Source: Sulfurospirillum barnesii SES-3
GTDB taxonomy: Bacteria; Campylobacterota; Campylobacteria; Campylobacterales; Sulfurospirillaceae
Assembly (NCBI RefSeq): GCF_000265295.1
Contig: NC_018002.1
Location: 1 to 64,000 of the forward strand
Length of the DNA: 64,000 nucleotides
Direction: 5' to 3'
This document shows positions 4,936 to 62,833 of the stretch, in pieces. The notes under the pieces are model-generated. The model was not told the origin of the DNA. It ran no database searches and saw nothing but the letters and a program-made list of their open reading frames with translations. The position numbers and the translations under genes were made by a program. Numbering within the stretch: the first letter of the stretch is position 1; every line of letters starts with the position of its first letter.

Positions 4936-6347
4936 TGCTCTATTCTGAGAAAAAAGAGAGAGAAAATCGATTTGTTATTGCTCTTAAAATCGCTTTTCCT
5001 CTTTTGCTTCTCATCGCTATTTTTTTTTATGCGTTTTCACTTTTCCCTGACACATCTTTAAATCTATTTTTACTCATTATATTTATTCCTATTTATGTCT
5101 ATTACACGGTTTATCTCATTTATCATAGCTTTCAAACAAGCCTGATTGATTCTGTGACAAAAACATTTACATGTAATGAAATTCTCTCAAAAATAAAAAA
5201 AGTAAAAAATAAAAAAAGCATGATTATTCTTTTACATGTAAACAATTTGGAAGATATTAATGAACGTTATGGAATTATAAACGGCAATAGCGTTTTACAA
5301 GAGCTCATGAAAGAGTTAGCACTTTTTTTGGAAGAACACCATTTTAAAAACACACCCATAGGTCGTTACAACCACAATACATTTTTACTCATTTTAGATG
5401 CCTCTTTGGAAGAACTAAACCATCTTTTAACCATTTTTACAAAACGTATTCAAACAAAAGGCTTACACAACATTGAAGTCATTCTCTCTTTTTCATCACT
5501 TGAAGCGCATTATGATACCAATCCCTCTCACACGATAGAGCGACTTTTTATGTTGATAGATAAATCACAAACAAATGAAAAGGCCCTTCCAGATATTCAA
5601 TTAAATACCTTTAAAAAGAGCCTGAACAGTGCTTTTTTAAACGATGGTATTTTATTTAAGTATCAACCCTCTTTACATGTAAAAGAGCAAAAAATAGCCC
5701 TTGTGGAGGTTTTAACACGTATTTATACCGATGCACACGGACTGTTTACAAAACAACACATTCAACCAATAATTAATCGTATGGGCTTAGAAAGAGCCTT
5801 AGATAAAATGATTTTTACAGCCTTAGCAGAAAAAATTAAGCCTTTGCTTCAACAAAAATTGTTTATTAGCATCGAAATTTCACCCGTAACACTTCGAAAT
5901 AGTAAATTTAAACACCACCTTGTCTCGTTATTTAAAGAAAAAAACCTTGACCCTCACTCTTTTATTCTTGAAATTGTTGAAGAAAAAAGTTATGAACAGA
6001 TGCATCGCTTTAAAGAAATTATTGAGAGCTATAAAGAAATGGGGTTTAAAATAGCATTGGGAAATTTTGGAGGCAATAACTGTGGCTTTGAATACCTCAA
6101 ATGTTTACCCATTGATTTGATTAAATTTGACATTGAATTTACCAAAAAAATTGAAGATGTGAAGTATCAAAAACTTTTAAAATCTTACATTGACCTTGCC
6201 AAAACGCTTCAGGTGCAAAGTATGGTAAAATTCGTGGACAAAGAGAGTACATTGGCACTTATTCAAGCCTGTGAGCCTGATTTTATTCAAGGCTTTTGTA
6301 TCTCAAAACCAAAAAGTATAAAGGAATTGAGTGATGAAATACGGTGA
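4935..6347 (+). CDS. Membrane-anchored degenerate GGDEF-EAL protein
   Basis: The 470-residue protein has two membrane helices in the first 65 residues. A GGDEF-like domain follows without a recognisable GGDEF motif, then an EAL-like domain. In the EAL domain the signature reads EVLTR instead of EALxR, and the metal-binding DDFG is replaced by GNFG (about residue 375). LIKFD is retained where active enzymes usually have xxKID. It is therefore probably not an active cyclic-di-GMP synthase or phosphodiesterase, but could bind the nucleotide or a protein partner. It overlaps gyrB by 1 base and queF by 14. It contains three copies of the TTACATGTAA palindrome. Confidence 0.8.
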   Translation: MLYSEKKERENRFVIALKIAFPLLLLIAIFFYAFSLFPDTSLNLFLLIIFIPIYVYYTVYLIYHSFQTSLIDSVTKTFTCNEILSKIKKVKNKKSMIILLHVNNLEDINERYGIINGNSVLQELMKELALFLEEHHFKNTPIGRYNHNTFLLILDASLEELNHLLTIFTKRIQTKGLHNIEVILSFSSLEAHYDTNPSHTIERLFMLIDKSQTNEKALPDIQLNTFKKSLNSAFLNDGILFKYQPSLHVKEQKIALVEVLTRIYTDAHGLFTKQHIQPIINRMGLERALDKMIFTALAEKIKPLLQQKLFISIEISPVTLRNSKFKHHLVSLFKEKNLDPHSFILEIVEEKSYEQMHRFKEIIESYKEMGFKIALGNFGGNNCGFEYLKCLPIDLIKFDIEFTKKIEDVKYQKLLKSYIDLAKTLQVQSMVKFVDKESTLALIQACEPDFIQGFCISKPKSIKELSDEIR

Positions 6348-6729
6348 ACAAATTATTAAAGAGTTTGATGTTGAAAAAGATTTGGAAATTTGGCCCAACC
6401 AGCATAAAAAAAATTATGTGATTAAGCTTATATTGCCTGAGTTTTGTTGTTTATGTCCACGCAGTGGCTATCCTGATTTTGCGACAATTTATATTGATTA
6501 TATTCCTAATGAACTCGTTGTAGAGCTTAAAGCCATCAAACTCTACATCAACAGTTTTATGAATCGCAACATCAGCCATGAAAATTCAGCCAATGAAATT
6601 TATGACCTTTTGGATTCTAAACTCAAACCAAAATGGCTCAAAGTGGTAGCAGATTTTAACCCACGAGGCAACGTGCATACGGTGATTGAGATTGATTCAA
6701 AATTGGTTCGAAACGAAACGTCATGTTAA
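6334..6729 (+). CDS. queF: NADPH-dependent 7-cyano-7-deazaguanine reductase QueF
   Basis: QueF reduces preQ0 to preQ1 in queuosine biosynthesis for tRNA modification. The 131-residue protein matches the short type I family. CLCPRSGYPDFA carries the catalytic Cys41 and Asp48, and ELKAIKLYINSFMNRNISHE matches the NADPH/substrate motif. I chose ATG 6334 because AAGGA at 6321-6325 is 8 bases upstream; GTG at 6331 is an alternative. It overlaps the EAL-like gene before it and, by 7 bases, the HD-domain gene after it. The three are probably translationally coupled. Confidence 0.92.
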   Translation: MKYGEQIIKEFDVEKDLEIWPNQHKKNYVIKLILPEFCCLCPRSGYPDFATIYIDYIPNELVVELKAIKLYINSFMNRNISHENSANEIYDLLDSKLKPKWLKVVADFNPRGNVHTVIEIDSKLVRNETSC

Positions 6730-7934
6730 ACCCAAAACTTATTGAGCAGTTCTTTGGAGCTGCTTCCATTCAGCGTTGGAATGATTATCCACGCATGGTG
6801 GAGTTGGTGGAGCTTGATAAACAAGCACACAAGTTCATCATCGCTTATTTTATTGCTAGAATGGAGCCTGAGGGCAGTGTCAATATGCGCTCCTTAATTG
6901 AAGCAGGCATTTTTGAATTTTTACGCCGTGTGGTGGTGACGGACATTCGCCCCGATGTGTTTCGAAAAGCGCTTCAAAAAAAAGAGAAAGAGATTAATTC
7001 GTGGGTGCTTTCACAACTCTATGATTCACTCAGTGAAATTGAAGAGGGCGCTTTTTGCAAGCGTTTTGAGGCTTATATTAACGATAGTTCTATGTATAAA
7101 AAAGAGCGTTTTATCCTCAAAGCGGCTTCGTACATGGCAACACGTTGGGAGTTTTCTATTGTCTATCAAACGAGTCAGTTTTTAAGCAACATTGACCGTG
7201 TGAAAGAAGCGGTGGAAGAAGAGATTGAAGATTATTACGAGCTGATTAGTGTTCGTAAAATGGCGATGAATAAAAAAATCTCTAAAATTATTGATTTGAG
7301 CGGACGACTTCGTTTTCAAAAGCGTTGGGCGCAAACGCCTCGTATTCCTGAGACTTCCGTGCTTGGGCACATGCTGATTGTCGCCATTTTAGGTTATTTT
7401 TACTCTCTTTTTTCCAAAGCGTGTGATGGGCGATTGGTCAATAACTTCTTTTGCGCTCTTTTTCACGACTTTCCTGAAGCACTCACACGTGACATCATCT
7501 CCCCTGTTAAGTATTCGGTGAGTGGGTTGGATGATATTATCAGTGAATTTGAAATTAAGATGATTGAAGAAGAGATATTGCCATACCTTCCTGAGGGGCT
7601 TGTTAAAGAGTTTAAGTACCTGCTTGGACTTTACGGGGATAATCAAAAAAATGAGTTTTTAAACCGCATTAATGAGCATGAAATTGTGGTCGTGGAAGAT
7701 GTAAGCGCCTACAATGAAGATAAATTTAATGCCATTGATGGAAAAGCCTTGAAAAATTGCGATAATTTAGCAGCATTTATTGAAGCGACCCTTTCTATTT
7801 CGCATGGGGTGAAGTCTAAAGAGCTCATTCAAGGCAAAGAACATATTTTAAAGAAGCTCAAAGAAAAAGGGCAAATGGGAAAAGCTGATTTTTACAAATT
7901 AGCGTTGGAGTTAGAAGAATATTTTGGAGTATAG
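6723..7934 (+). CDS. HD-domain phosphohydrolase (YfbR/HD_3-like)
   Basis: The 403-residue protein contains one HD domain with LGH (His216) and FHDFPE (His248-Asp249), ordered as in metal-dependent HD phosphohydrolases. The segment ETSVLGHMLIVAIL...ALFHDFPEALTRDIISPVK resembles the YfbR/HD_3 group, whose characterised members act on nucleotides. The substrate here is unknown. The N-terminal 200 residues are not recognised. ATG 6723 overlaps the queF stop by 7 bases, making it the last gene of the gyrB-EAL-queF run. Confidence 0.7.
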   Translation: MLNPKLIEQFFGAASIQRWNDYPRMVELVELDKQAHKFIIAYFIARMEPEGSVNMRSLIEAGIFEFLRRVVVTDIRPDVFRKALQKKEKEINSWVLSQLYDSLSEIEEGAFCKRFEAYINDSSMYKKERFILKAASYMATRWEFSIVYQTSQFLSNIDRVKEAVEEEIEDYYELISVRKMAMNKKISKIIDLSGRLRFQKRWAQTPRIPETSVLGHMLIVAILGYFYSLFSKACDGRLVNNFFCALFHDFPEALTRDIISPVKYSVSGLDDIISEFEIKMIEEEILPYLPEGLVKEFKYLLGLYGDNQKNEFLNRINEHEIVVVEDVSAYNEDKFNAIDGKALKNCDNLAAFIEATLSISHGVKSKELIQGKEHILKKLKEKGQMGKADFYKLALELEEYFGV

Positions 7935-62051: not shown

Positions 62052-62137
62052 TTTTATTGTAAAATTGACGTTACCAACAAAGTTTATAAGCAGCGTTACA
62101 AGAGCTTTGGTGGTTTGAGCTGTAAGCAATTATTGTA

Positions 62138-62833
62138 TCAAAAATTTCTTAATTCTATGGGGATAATGGAGGATAATTCACTGATTTTAAACTTATTTTG
62201 TTGCTCTTTTGTTTCACCGAGGGTTTGGCTTACATGTAAATAATTTTGAAGGTAGTAAATACCGCAATACCCCTTTACATGTAAATCATTAATGATAGCA
62301 TTGAGGTGTTTGGGTGTTAGAAAATCACTGTGCAATGTGGTACGTACTTCAAAAGGAAATTGGCTGTGAATTAGGTAGTTGAGGCTCTCTTCAAAGTCTT
62401 CAAAATGGGCATGGTGTGTTAAAGTGCTGTAGTACTCTTTGGGTGCTTTGTAATCCAGCGCAATGTAATCAACAAGCTTTTTTTCAATTAATCGTTTCAG
62501 TACATGAGGATGTGTACCATTGGTATCAATTTTGATTTTGTAGTCTAACGCTTTAACGGCTTCACAAAAGCTTTCAAGATGAGGGAACAAAGTACACTCC
62601 CCTCCACTTAGAACAACAGCCTCAAGCCGACCTTTACGATTTTTAAGAAATTCAAGGGCTGATTCAAGGCTTATCTCACCTTTTCCTCTTACGATCTGTG
62701 GATTGTAGCAATAAGGACATGCCATATTGCATTTAGTAAACCAAAAAATAGACGCTAGATGACCTTGATAATCCAGCGTCGTAAATTTGGTAATGCTGTG
62801 AATTGGCTTATTTGCAAGCACATTTTTCAACAA
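62138..62833 (-). CDS. nrdG: Anaerobic ribonucleotide reductase activating enzyme NrdG
   Basis: The 231-residue radical SAM protein has the cluster motif CNMACPYC and the SAM motif LSGGECTLFP. It should generate the glycyl radical on NrdD. The start is uncertain: TTG 62833 gives a 26-base overlap with the small glycyl-radical gene, and GTG 62821 is an alternative. Two palindromes close to the 3' end encode DLHVKGY and YLHVSQ. Confidence 0.88.
   Translation of the reverse strand: MLKNVLANKPIHSITKFTTLDYQGHLASIFWFTKCNMACPYCYNPQIVRGKGEISLESALEFLKNRKGRLEAVVLSGGECTLFPHLESFCEAVKALDYKIKIDTNGTHPHVLKRLIEKKLVDYIALDYKAPKEYYSTLTHHAHFEDFEESLNYLIHSQFPFEVRTTLHSDFLTPKHLNAIINDLHVKGYCGIYYLQNYLHVSQTLGETKEQQNKFKISELSSIIPIELRNF

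What the first reader, a model, noticed from the sequence alone, without database searches (positions are those of the whole stretch)
5167..62284. Highly iterated palindrome TTTACATGTAAA across the window
I counted 33 exact copies of TTACATGTAA, most extended to TTTACATGTAAA, about one per 2 kb. Assuming roughly 31% each A/T and 19% each G/C, well under one copy would be expected. First positions: 5167, 5232, 5673, 9128, 9334, 9437, 9716, 16892, 17375, 18410, 20221, 21614, 21667, 22342, 29354, 30090, 34537, 36456, 36668, 37460, 39234, 41050, 44828, 45145, 46106, 48654, 50993, 53364, 55029, 55294, 60038, 62230, 62275. This resembles the cyanobacterial HIP1 element or a DNA uptake sequence in density, but with a different, fully palindromic word. 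I know of no described role in this group.
Basis: partly seen in the sequence, partly recalled or inferred. Interest (0 to 1): 0.88.

Follow-up and report, generated by a model that had tools for sequence, protein, structure and literature searches.

The report
Palindromic genome-wide tag in Sulfurospirillum
A 10-letter palindrome is repeated about 1,200 times across this bacterium's genome, kept at the same places in related species and largely lost in some relatives, and it looks like a self-DNA recognition tag of a kind for which I found no earlier report in this group.

Summary
In detail: 33 exact TTACATGTAA at the listed coordinates, 1,230 copies in the 2.51-Mb genome against 6 of the reversed word. 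'Most extended' is wrong: 15 of 33 are TTTACATGTAAA. All 24 Sulfurospirillum genomes searched carry 49-1,496 copies. The core TACATGTA is also iterated, patchily, in another family of the order, sometimes with other flanks. Sites keep their place: 24 of 26 aligned sites in a relative at 83% DNA identity, where about 29% of comparable 10-mers are identical. One-mismatch forms of the core are at background in most word-rich Sulfurospirillum genomes sampled. In Sulfurospirillum the flanks carry A/T peaks about 11 bp apart out to about 33 bp on both sides, in coding and intergenic sites alike. An orphan adenine methyltransferase, inferred CATG-specific because relatives sit beside IceA-like genes, is associated with the word but neither necessary nor sufficient. 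Best reading: a palindromic, possibly methylation-coupled DNA-uptake signal, about 45% likely. A DNA-wrapping architectural site and a HIP1-like methylation by-product are the main rivals. Function is untested.

The parts
5167..5176 (.). TTACATGTAA copy 1, in GGDEF/EAL gene 4935-6347
   Evidence: aligned but not conserved in G015, G013, G019
5232..5241 (.). copy 2, same gene
   Evidence: conserved in G015, G013, G019; TTACATGTCA in G021
5673..5682 (.). copy 3, same gene
   Evidence: conserved in G015, not in G013 or G019
9128..9137 (.). copy 4, in mutY-like gene 8842-9795
   Evidence: conserved in G015, G013; TGACATGTCA in G021
9334..9343 (.). copy 5, mutY-like gene
   Evidence: conserved in G015, G013
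9437..9446 (.). copy 6, mutY-like gene
   Evidence: conserved in G015, G013, G019; TGACATGTCA in G021
9716..9725 (.). copy 7, mutY-like gene
   Evidence: conserved in G015
16892..16901 (.). copy 8, divergent intergenic
   Evidence: conserved in G015
17375..17384 (.). copy 9, in ORF 16949-17620
   Evidence: conserved in G015
18410..18419 (.). copy 10, convergent intergenic
   Evidence: conserved in G015, G019
20221..20230 (.). copy 11, in ORF 20031-21614
   Evidence: conserved in G015, G019; CTACATGTAA in G013
21614..21623 (.). copy 12, at the start of ORF 20031-21614
   Evidence: conserved in G015
21667..21676 (.). copy 13, intergenic
   Evidence: conserved in G015
22342..22351 (.). copy 14, in ORF 22229-23161
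   Evidence: conserved in G019
29354..29363 (.). copy 15, intergenic
   Evidence: conserved in G019
30090..30099 (.). copy 16, convergent intergenic
   Evidence: not in the alignments
34537..34546 (.). copy 17, intergenic
   Evidence: conserved in G015
36456..36465 (.). copy 18, in ABC-transporter gene 36317-37135
   Evidence: conserved in G015
36668..36677 (.). copy 19, same gene
   Evidence: conserved in G015
37460..37469 (.). copy 20, in ORF 37111-37893
   Evidence: aligned but not conserved in G015
39234..39243 (.). copy 21, intergenic
   Evidence: not in the alignments
41050..41059 (.). copy 22, in class-V aminotransferase gene 40686-41828
   Evidence: conserved in G015
44828..44837 (.). 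copy 23, in AMMECR1 gene 44565-45215
   Evidence: conserved in G015, G019; not in G013
45145..45154 (.). copy 24, same gene
   Evidence: conserved in G015, G019
46106..46115. copy 25 (intergenic by the script's gene call; lies in ORF 45649-46449)
   Evidence: conserved in G013, G019
48654..48663 (.). copy 26, in formate-dehydrogenase-alpha-like gene 48405-50489
   Evidence: conserved in G015, G013, G019
50993..51002 (.). copy 27, upstream of ilvD (51053)
   Evidence: conserved in G015, G013
53364..53373 (.). copy 28, 3' end of ORF 52732-53373 (supplies its TAA stop)
   Evidence: conserved in G015, G013
55029..55038 (.). copy 29, in chemotaxis-receptor-like gene 53608-55281
   Evidence: not in the alignments
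55294..55303 (.). copy 30, divergent intergenic
   Evidence: not in the alignments
60038..60047 (.). copy 31, in PCMT gene 59629-60288
   Evidence: conserved in G015, G013
62230..62239 (.). copy 32, in radical-SAM gene 62138-62833
   Evidence: conserved in G015; CTACATGTAA in G013
62275..62284 (.). copy 33, same gene
   Evidence: conserved in G015, G013

Best explanation
The word is a palindromic DNA-uptake / self-recognition signal of Sulfurospirillum and some relatives. A DNA-binding protein, most likely at the cell envelope and part of the natural-transformation machinery, recognises the core TACATGTA nearly all-or-none, with T/A and then C/G preferred outside it. In Sulfurospirillum that protein also bends or kinks some 70 bp of DNA, which left the phased A/T flanks. 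Preferential import and recombination of tagged DNA from kin would then create copies, restore lost ones at the same places, and let dialects drift by lineage. An orphan m6A methyltransferase, inferred to act on the central CATG, may add a methylation layer as CtsM does in Campylobacter jejuni. Shown: over-representation, taxonomic range, positional conservation, sharp core, phased flanks, dialects, methyltransferase association, ComEC present. Inferred: the reader protein, the bending, uptake, drive, and methylation of the site.
For: 1,230 copies against 6 of the control; found in 24 of 24 Sulfurospirillum. Positions conserved: 24/26, 10/20 and 10/16 against 29%, 17% and 17% expected. Near-misses at the four inner half-core positions are at background in G000 (20 seen, 27 expected), G015, G019, G013, G014, G007 and G017, and in excess in the poor G010 (15 against 4.9) and G020 (11 against 5.1). 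150 of 235 sites (64%) lie in ORFs, with intergenic odds 3.5 times those of other 10-mers with two G/C; PMC1939737 gives 65% in ORFs for H. influenzae uptake sequences (35% for N. gonorrhoeae) and a non-coding excess (passages). A/T peaks at 10-13, 21-25 and 33 bp from the centre: power 0.059 against at most 0.0036 in 300 shifted sets, equal in coding and intergenic sites; Pasteurellaceae uptake signals have A/T segments about one helical turn apart, proposed to help kink the DNA (PMC1626085, passages). Dialects around a fixed core: TCTACATGTAGA in G429, TGACATGT beside TTACATGT in G021, as Neisseriaceae uptake sequences have (PMC3630211). Two related S. diekertiae plasmids are poor in it: 4 copies each in 39.9 and 38.0 kb. 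ComEC in 40 of 41 genomes, own included. C. jejuni DNA uptake needs DNA methylated by CtsM (PMC8468864, passages).
Against: No uptake experiment exists here, and competence of Sulfurospirillum was not looked for beyond ComEC. The uptake sequences treated in PMC1939737 are not palindromes and are not biased to sites downstream of genes (passages), whereas this word is densest between convergent genes. No receptor gene was identified. ComEC is equally present in genomes without the word. The phased flanks are weaker in G015, within the null in G024 and not detectable in the other family f17 (power 0.0030, null mean 0.0021, n=71; 0.0048, null mean 0.0058, n=27). Near-misses are also in excess in G002, G024 and G144, which still hold 367-605 copies, and near background in the poorest genome G009 (14 against 10.9). 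The methyltransferase is missing from near-complete, word-rich G017, G156, G346, G403, G425 and G191, and present in some word-poor genomes.
Confidence: 0.45

Rival explanations
1. Chromosome-architecture site: a cytoplasmic nucleoid protein binds the core and wraps or bends some 70 bp, marking the chromosome every 2 kb; a topoisomerase such as gyrase is one candidate.
For: Symmetric A/T phasing of about 11 bp out to about 33 bp each side. Even density in the samples along the chromosome. Highest intergenic density between convergent genes, 4.3 per kb against 2.0 codirectional and 1.4 divergent by script gene calls.
Against: Copy number varies from 49 to 1,496 within one genus and from 8 to 848 core copies within genus g18, and G009 has nearly lost the word, which is odd for a housekeeping function. 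Phasing is not detectable in f17. Seven site pairs in the sample are only 15-21 bp apart, too close for both to be wrapped.
Confidence: 0.25
2. HIP1-like by-product of DNA methylation: the orphan CATG methyltransferase and a methylation-directed repair bias create and keep the word, with no function of the word itself (Elhai's model for HIP1).
For: Association with the methyltransferase: in Sulfurospirillum median 1,127 copies with (n=17) and 412 without (n=7), Mann-Whitney p=0.0013; in f17 18 of 30 genomes with 20 copies or more against 12 of 121 others, p=2.7e-8, at 42% identity or more, or 19 of 30 against 23 of 121, p=5e-6, with every match counted; none corrected for phylogeny. One-base deviants concentrate at the outermost position, as the abstract of PMC4390886 says for HIP1.
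Against: Within genus g18 the association depends on the identity cut-off: p=0.009 at 42% or more, p=0.34 with every match. G017, G156, G346, G403, G425 and G191 are rich without the enzyme. IceA-paired copies occur in word-poor G028, G034 and G048, though a divergent ICEA-like neighbour also occurs in enriched G417. Only 33 of 274 CATG in the window lie in the word. A repair ratchet at CATG does not predict A/T phasing to 33 bp.
Confidence: 0.18
3. Transcription signals: regulator operators or terminators.
For: Intergenic excess, highest between convergent genes. 14 of 214 neighbouring pairs are closer than 60 bp (6.4 expected), 7 of them 15-21 bp, so paired copies could form stem-loops.
Against: 150 of 235 sites are inside ORFs; phasing is the same there and many ORF sites are conserved.
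Confidence: 0.05
4. Restriction, defence or selfish-element signature.
For: Relatives of the methyltransferase are parts of IceA-type R-M loci.
Against: R-M usually goes with site avoidance (PMC4687349, passages), not a 200-fold excess of a 10-bp word. No nuclease among the ten ORFs scanned beside the enzyme in seven loci of the family. Sequence around the copies differs beyond about 8 bp from the centre, so it is not a transposed repeat.
Confidence: 0.05

Closest known systems
DNA uptake sequences of Pasteurellaceae (USS) and Neisseriaceae (DUS)
   Same: About one copy per 1-2 kb; ORF share near the 65% given for H. influenzae; non-coding excess; fixed core with dialects; A/T-rich segments about one helical turn apart in USS (PMC1626085 and PMC1939737 passages, PMC3630211 abstract and section 'DUS dialects')
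   Different: Those words are not palindromes and USS flanks are on one side; here the word is palindromic and the flanks symmetric, and it is densest between convergent genes. Uptake is not shown here.
HIP1 of cyanobacteria (GCGATCGC)
   Same: Highly iterated palindrome; orphan methyltransferases for inner sites generally but not always present; deviants at outer bases (PMC4390886: abstract and part 1 of section 3.4 read); a role of the HIP1 methyl mark in transformation and conjugation has been raised (PMC6604393, passages)
   Different: Other word, other phylum; phased A/T flanks (whether HIP1 has them was not examined); one inferred methyltransferase rather than two
CtsM methylation-dependent uptake in Campylobacter jejuni
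   Same: Same order (recalled); a methyl mark decides uptake (PMC8468864, passages)
   Different: There the mark is RATTY as printed in that paper; here a long over-represented word with a CATG centre. CtsM was not compared with this enzyme.
IceA/NlaIII-type CATG restriction-modification (H. pylori M.HpyAI, alpha-class m6A at CATG; PMC3936762 passages)
   Same: Probably the same methyltransferase family, inferred from ICEA-family neighbours of its relatives; no direct comparison with M.HpyAI was made
   Different: No endonuclease neighbour found in Sulfurospirillum: orphan

Membership tests
DNA uptake sequence (DUS/USS) | Short word grossly over-represented genome-wide | tested here: met
   1,230 against 6; 235 against 1.1 expected
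DNA uptake sequence (DUS/USS) | Preferential uptake of DNA carrying it | not testable with these tools
   needs transformation or uptake assays
DNA uptake sequence (DUS/USS) | Competence machinery present | tested here: inconclusive
   ComEC in G000 and in 40 of 41 genomes; no other competence gene tested, and word-poor genomes have ComEC too
DNA uptake sequence (DUS/USS) | Stable positions in coding and non-coding DNA | tested here: met
DNA uptake sequence (DUS/USS) | Dialects around a fixed core | tested here: met
   agreement with a species tree not tested
DNA uptake sequence (DUS/USS) | Non-palindromic word (so for those treated in PMC1939737) | tested here: not met
   word is fully palindromic
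HIP1 (cyanobacterial) | GCGATCGC word in a cyanobacterium | tested here: not met
   different word; genus linked to Sulfurospirillum through plasmid pSDCE1
Highly iterated palindrome with matching orphan methyltransferase | Methyltransferase for an inner site present where the word is abundant | tested here: inconclusive
   17 of 24 Sulfurospirillum (one as two fragments); 18 of 30 enriched f17 against 12 of 121; weaker with looser cut-off and not significant within g18 then; specificity inferred only
IceA-type R-M system | ICEA-family endonuclease gene beside the methyltransferase | tested here: not met
   tblastn with the G028 ICEA protein matches only G028, G034 and G048 among the loci searched; ten neighbouring ORFs from seven Sulfurospirillaceae loci hold no ICEA or other nuclease match

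The most novel reading that the evidence does not exclude
A palindromic, methylation-coupled DNA-uptake code, the first over-represented uptake sequence of the Campylobacterota as far as my searches show: an orphan CATG methyltransferase writes the mark, a receptor reads TACATGTA and kinks DNA symmetrically over some 70 bp, and lineage dialects act as barriers to exchange.
Probability: 0.35. Interest if true: 0.92.

Novelty: new variant of a known kind. Interest (0 to 1): 0.8.

Why it matters
Uptake sequences are best known from two families and HIP1 from cyanobacteria, and what made them accumulate is still argued over. A palindromic word in a third phylum, gained, lost and turned into dialects among relatives, with a candidate methyltransferase that comes and goes and a helical footprint around the sites, makes questions such as drive versus selection, the role of methylation and DNA kinking at entry directly testable in culturable, non-pathogenic bacteria.

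Tried and rejected
Chance and base composition: rejected. Transposed repeat: rejected, since sequence around the copies differs beyond about 8 bp from the centre except for the A/T phasing. Artefact of genome-wide A-tract phasing or codon structure: rejected, since five control word classes (108-1,672 places each) and shifted sites lack the signal and coding and intergenic sites agree. ComEC as the explanation of the patchy distribution: rejected. A PF01555 methyltransferase filling the gap in word-rich genomes without the D12 enzyme: not supported (matches in 11 of 22 genomes, none in word-rich G156, G403, G425, G346, G191, G001; present in G017, G018, G339, G427, G429, G438). The methyltransferase as sole cause: not supported. 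Tree from one locus: poorly resolved, because the longest ORF taken was a neighbouring fragment and the G018 row was misread; not used. Naming family f17: tried through named loci, not resolved.

Limits: gene calls are my script's, not an annotation. The stretches of relatives are samples of 20-180 kb each. p-values over genomes ignore phylogeny. Methyltransferase absence in incomplete genomes (G001, G018, G335, G341, G364) is uncertain, and G006 was counted as having it on two fragments. 'Present' in f17 meant 42% identity or more (30 genomes); 12 genomes with weaker matches were left out of that count and added. Some f17 matches are reported with an in-frame stop, which I did not examine. 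D12 was the second gene family tried and PF01555 the third.

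
Full report
OBSERVATION. The window holds exactly 33 TTACATGTAA at the positions listed; 15 are TTTACATGTAAA, so 'most' is an overstatement. The window is bases 1-64,000 of a 2,510,109-bp single contig with 1,230 copies, against 6 of the reversed word. In the window plus twenty 20-kb samples (464 kb) there are 235 copies where an order-2 Markov model expects 1.1, evenly spread, 6-13 per 20-kb sample.

WHO HAS IT. Of 24 genomes of the genus all have 49-1,496 copies; lowest are G009 49, G011 168, G020 238, G021 411, G010 412. 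G024 (same family, other genus) has 446, and 16 genomes of other families have 0-6. One relative's second contig matches S. diekertiae plasmid pSDCE1 at the same coordinates, so the genus is taken to be Sulfurospirillum; the species was not determined. Over 298 genomes of the phylum the word is also enriched in G191 (567) and G200 (107) of the same family, not in G092 (7), and in five members of one other family, f17 (31-367 copies). In 151 f17 genomes 30 have 20 copies or more. Counted by the core TACATGTA, 29 of the 151 have at least three times the control, with 99-1,768 copies (G334, 10 against 0, left out), and two are in between (G387 113 against 49, G434 112 against 38).

ANATOMY. Variants with one change at the 2nd to 5th base (or the mirror position) are at or under the Markov background in G000 (20 seen, 27 expected), G015, G019, G013, G014, G007 and G017 (6 against 5.2). 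They are in excess in poor G010 (15 against 4.9) and G020 (11 against 5.1), which fits decay, but also in G002, G024 and G144, and G009, the poorest, is near background (14 against 10.9). G021 has 19 copies with G at the second base, a dialect. In G000 only the outermost T is clearly tolerant, mostly of C (32 cases). Outside it T and then C are preferred, giving nCTTTACATGTAAAGn. G021 uses TGACATGT beside TTACATGT; G429 in f17 uses mainly TCTACATGTAGA (CT flank in 31 of 60). At orthologous positions G021 shows TGACATGTCA where the window has TTACATGTAA (9128, 9437), so dialects replace one another in place.

FLANKS. A/T content around 233 sites oscillates: peaks at 10-13, 21-25 and 33 bp from the centre, troughs at 7-8, 16-18, 27-29 and 38-40. 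Spectral power near 11 bp (distances 9-41) is 0.059; 300 sets of shifted sites reach at most 0.0036, and subsamples of five control word classes at most 0.0155. Coding (0.061, n=150) and intergenic (0.062, n=74) sites agree. It recurs in G019 (0.076, null maximum 0.011), G017 (0.031, 0.015), G021+G002 (0.035, 0.018) and, closer to the null, in the pooled low-copy genomes (0.038, 0.027). It is within the null in G024 (0.014, 0.016) and not detectable in f17; in G015 it is weaker. A protein that bends or wraps some 70 bp in Sulfurospirillum is the simplest reading; that step is inference.

PLACES. By script gene of 235 sites are inside ORFs, 84 intergenic and 1 on a gene edge. Against all 10-mers with two G/C the intergenic odds are 3.5 times higher; TTA....TAA control words show no such excess (13 intergenic, 78 coding). 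Intergenic density is 4.3 per kb between convergent genes, 2.0 codirectional, 1.4 divergent. Sites are conserved: 24 of 26 aligned in G015 (83% identity; 29% of comparable 10-mers identical), 10 of 20 in G013 and 10 of 16 in G019 (78%; 17%), but 0 of 14 in word-poor G009 at the same divergence and 0 of 8 unchanged in G021 (the G009 figure alone is not significant, p=0.15). Four copies lie in one mutY-like gene next to a uracil-DNA-glycosylase-family gene; three are conserved in G013. gyrB and recJ in the window have none, so I claim no bias to repair genes. Two S. diekertiae plasmids, which share genes, have 4 copies each, 0.10 per kb.

METHYLTRANSFERASE. A D12-class adenine methyltransferase, 324 aa (G000 C1:2225021-2225992, minus strand), has orthologues in 17 of 24 Sulfurospirillum, G006 counted on two fragments. 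It is missing in G009, G010, G011, G020, G017 and in two incomplete genomes, G001 and G018. DPPY and the FxGxG-type motif are intact in the nine proteins examined. Its closest relative outside the family (G028, 50% identity) is next to an ICEA-family gene (E 4.8e-71); G034 and G048 and, more divergent, G417 (E 1.7e-7) also have one. That IceA is an NlaIII-type CATG endonuclease is recalled; H. pylori M.HpyAI is an alpha-class m6A CATG enzyme (PMC3936762, passages). More distant relatives include fused D12 enzymes of an AlwI-type system, so the family is not uniform. That the enzyme methylates the centre of the palindrome is therefore inference. Ten ORFs beside it in seven loci of the family are kinases, a response regulator, transglutaminase, amidase, a chemoreceptor, a dehydroquinase and one without a match: no nuclease. 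In f17 the enzyme often lies beside tsaD, sometimes with dxr or a hydrolase, and beside a recO-like gene in G326 and, by similarity, G316. Association: copies in Sulfurospirillum with against without, p=0.0013; f17 18 of 30 against 12 of 121, p=2.7e-8, or 19 of 30 against 23 of 121 with every match counted; within genus g18 7 of 13 against 7 of 45, p=0.009, but 7 of 13 against 16 of 45, p=0.34, with every match. No phylogenetic correction was made. Exceptions are real: near-complete, word-rich G017, G156, G346, G403, G425 and G191 lack it; near-misses in G017 and G156 are at background, so the word seems kept there without it; and some genomes carry it without the word.

READING. The set of features (density, ORF share, fixed places, sharp core, dialects, phased A/T flanks) resembles DNA uptake signals more than any other known kind I considered. 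Pasteurellaceae USS also have A/T segments about one helical turn apart, proposed to help the DNA kink for membrane passage (PMC1626085 and PMC12616744, passages). In C. jejuni uptake requires CtsM methylation (PMC8468864, passages). HIP1 offers the parallel of an iterated palindrome with orphan methyltransferases and exceptions to the rule (PMC4390886). A nucleoid protein or gyrase site remains possible because of the phasing and the convergent-gene excess. I commit to an uptake signal at 45%, architecture at 25%, a methylation by-product at 18%. Membership in DUS/USS is not claimed: uptake is untested and the palindromic form differs.

LITERATURE. Searches for the 10- and 12-mer, Sulfurospirillum with uptake sequence, with palindromes or over-representation, and with methylome found no report of this element in the library searched. 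In a Sulfurospirillum comparative-genomics paper a term search found no 'uptake' or 'competence', and 'palindrom' only in the CRISPR sense (PMC8865925, passages).

Noticed in passing
window 22352-29353: A 7-kb gap without the word covers ORFs 23817-28433, one of which (24446-27355) weakly resembles the PtuA defence ATPase (E 1.7e-10, under the family's cut-off): possibly recently acquired DNA.
   Followed up: no
L119-L138 (G000 samples): GATATC is almost absent (7 in 400 kb, o/e 0.08) and GATC is low (o/e 0.37), suggesting past or present restriction pressure at those sites; GATC is 0.87 in G019.
   Followed up: no
G000 samples (400 kb): GTCGGTTCGA and overlapping words occur about 21 times, probably one tandem or CRISPR-like array.
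   Followed up: no
L263:1919-2467 (pSDCE1): Five ACATGT within 550 bp lie inside the plasmid's own D12 methyltransferase gene.
   Followed up: no
L301-L330 (f17 loci around the methyltransferase): The place beside tsaD looks like a hot spot: the D12 methyltransferase with ICEA-like, C5-methylase or Eco57I-like neighbours in different genomes.
   Followed up: partly
f17 genomes without enrichment: TACATGTA is often rarer than its reversed control (e.g. G091 6 against 25), so the core may be avoided where it is not used.
   Followed up: no
L260 / L264 (pSDIE1): The sister plasmid of S. diekertiae ACSTCE carries many genes in pieces as annotated, the D12 methyltransferase included.
   Followed up: no
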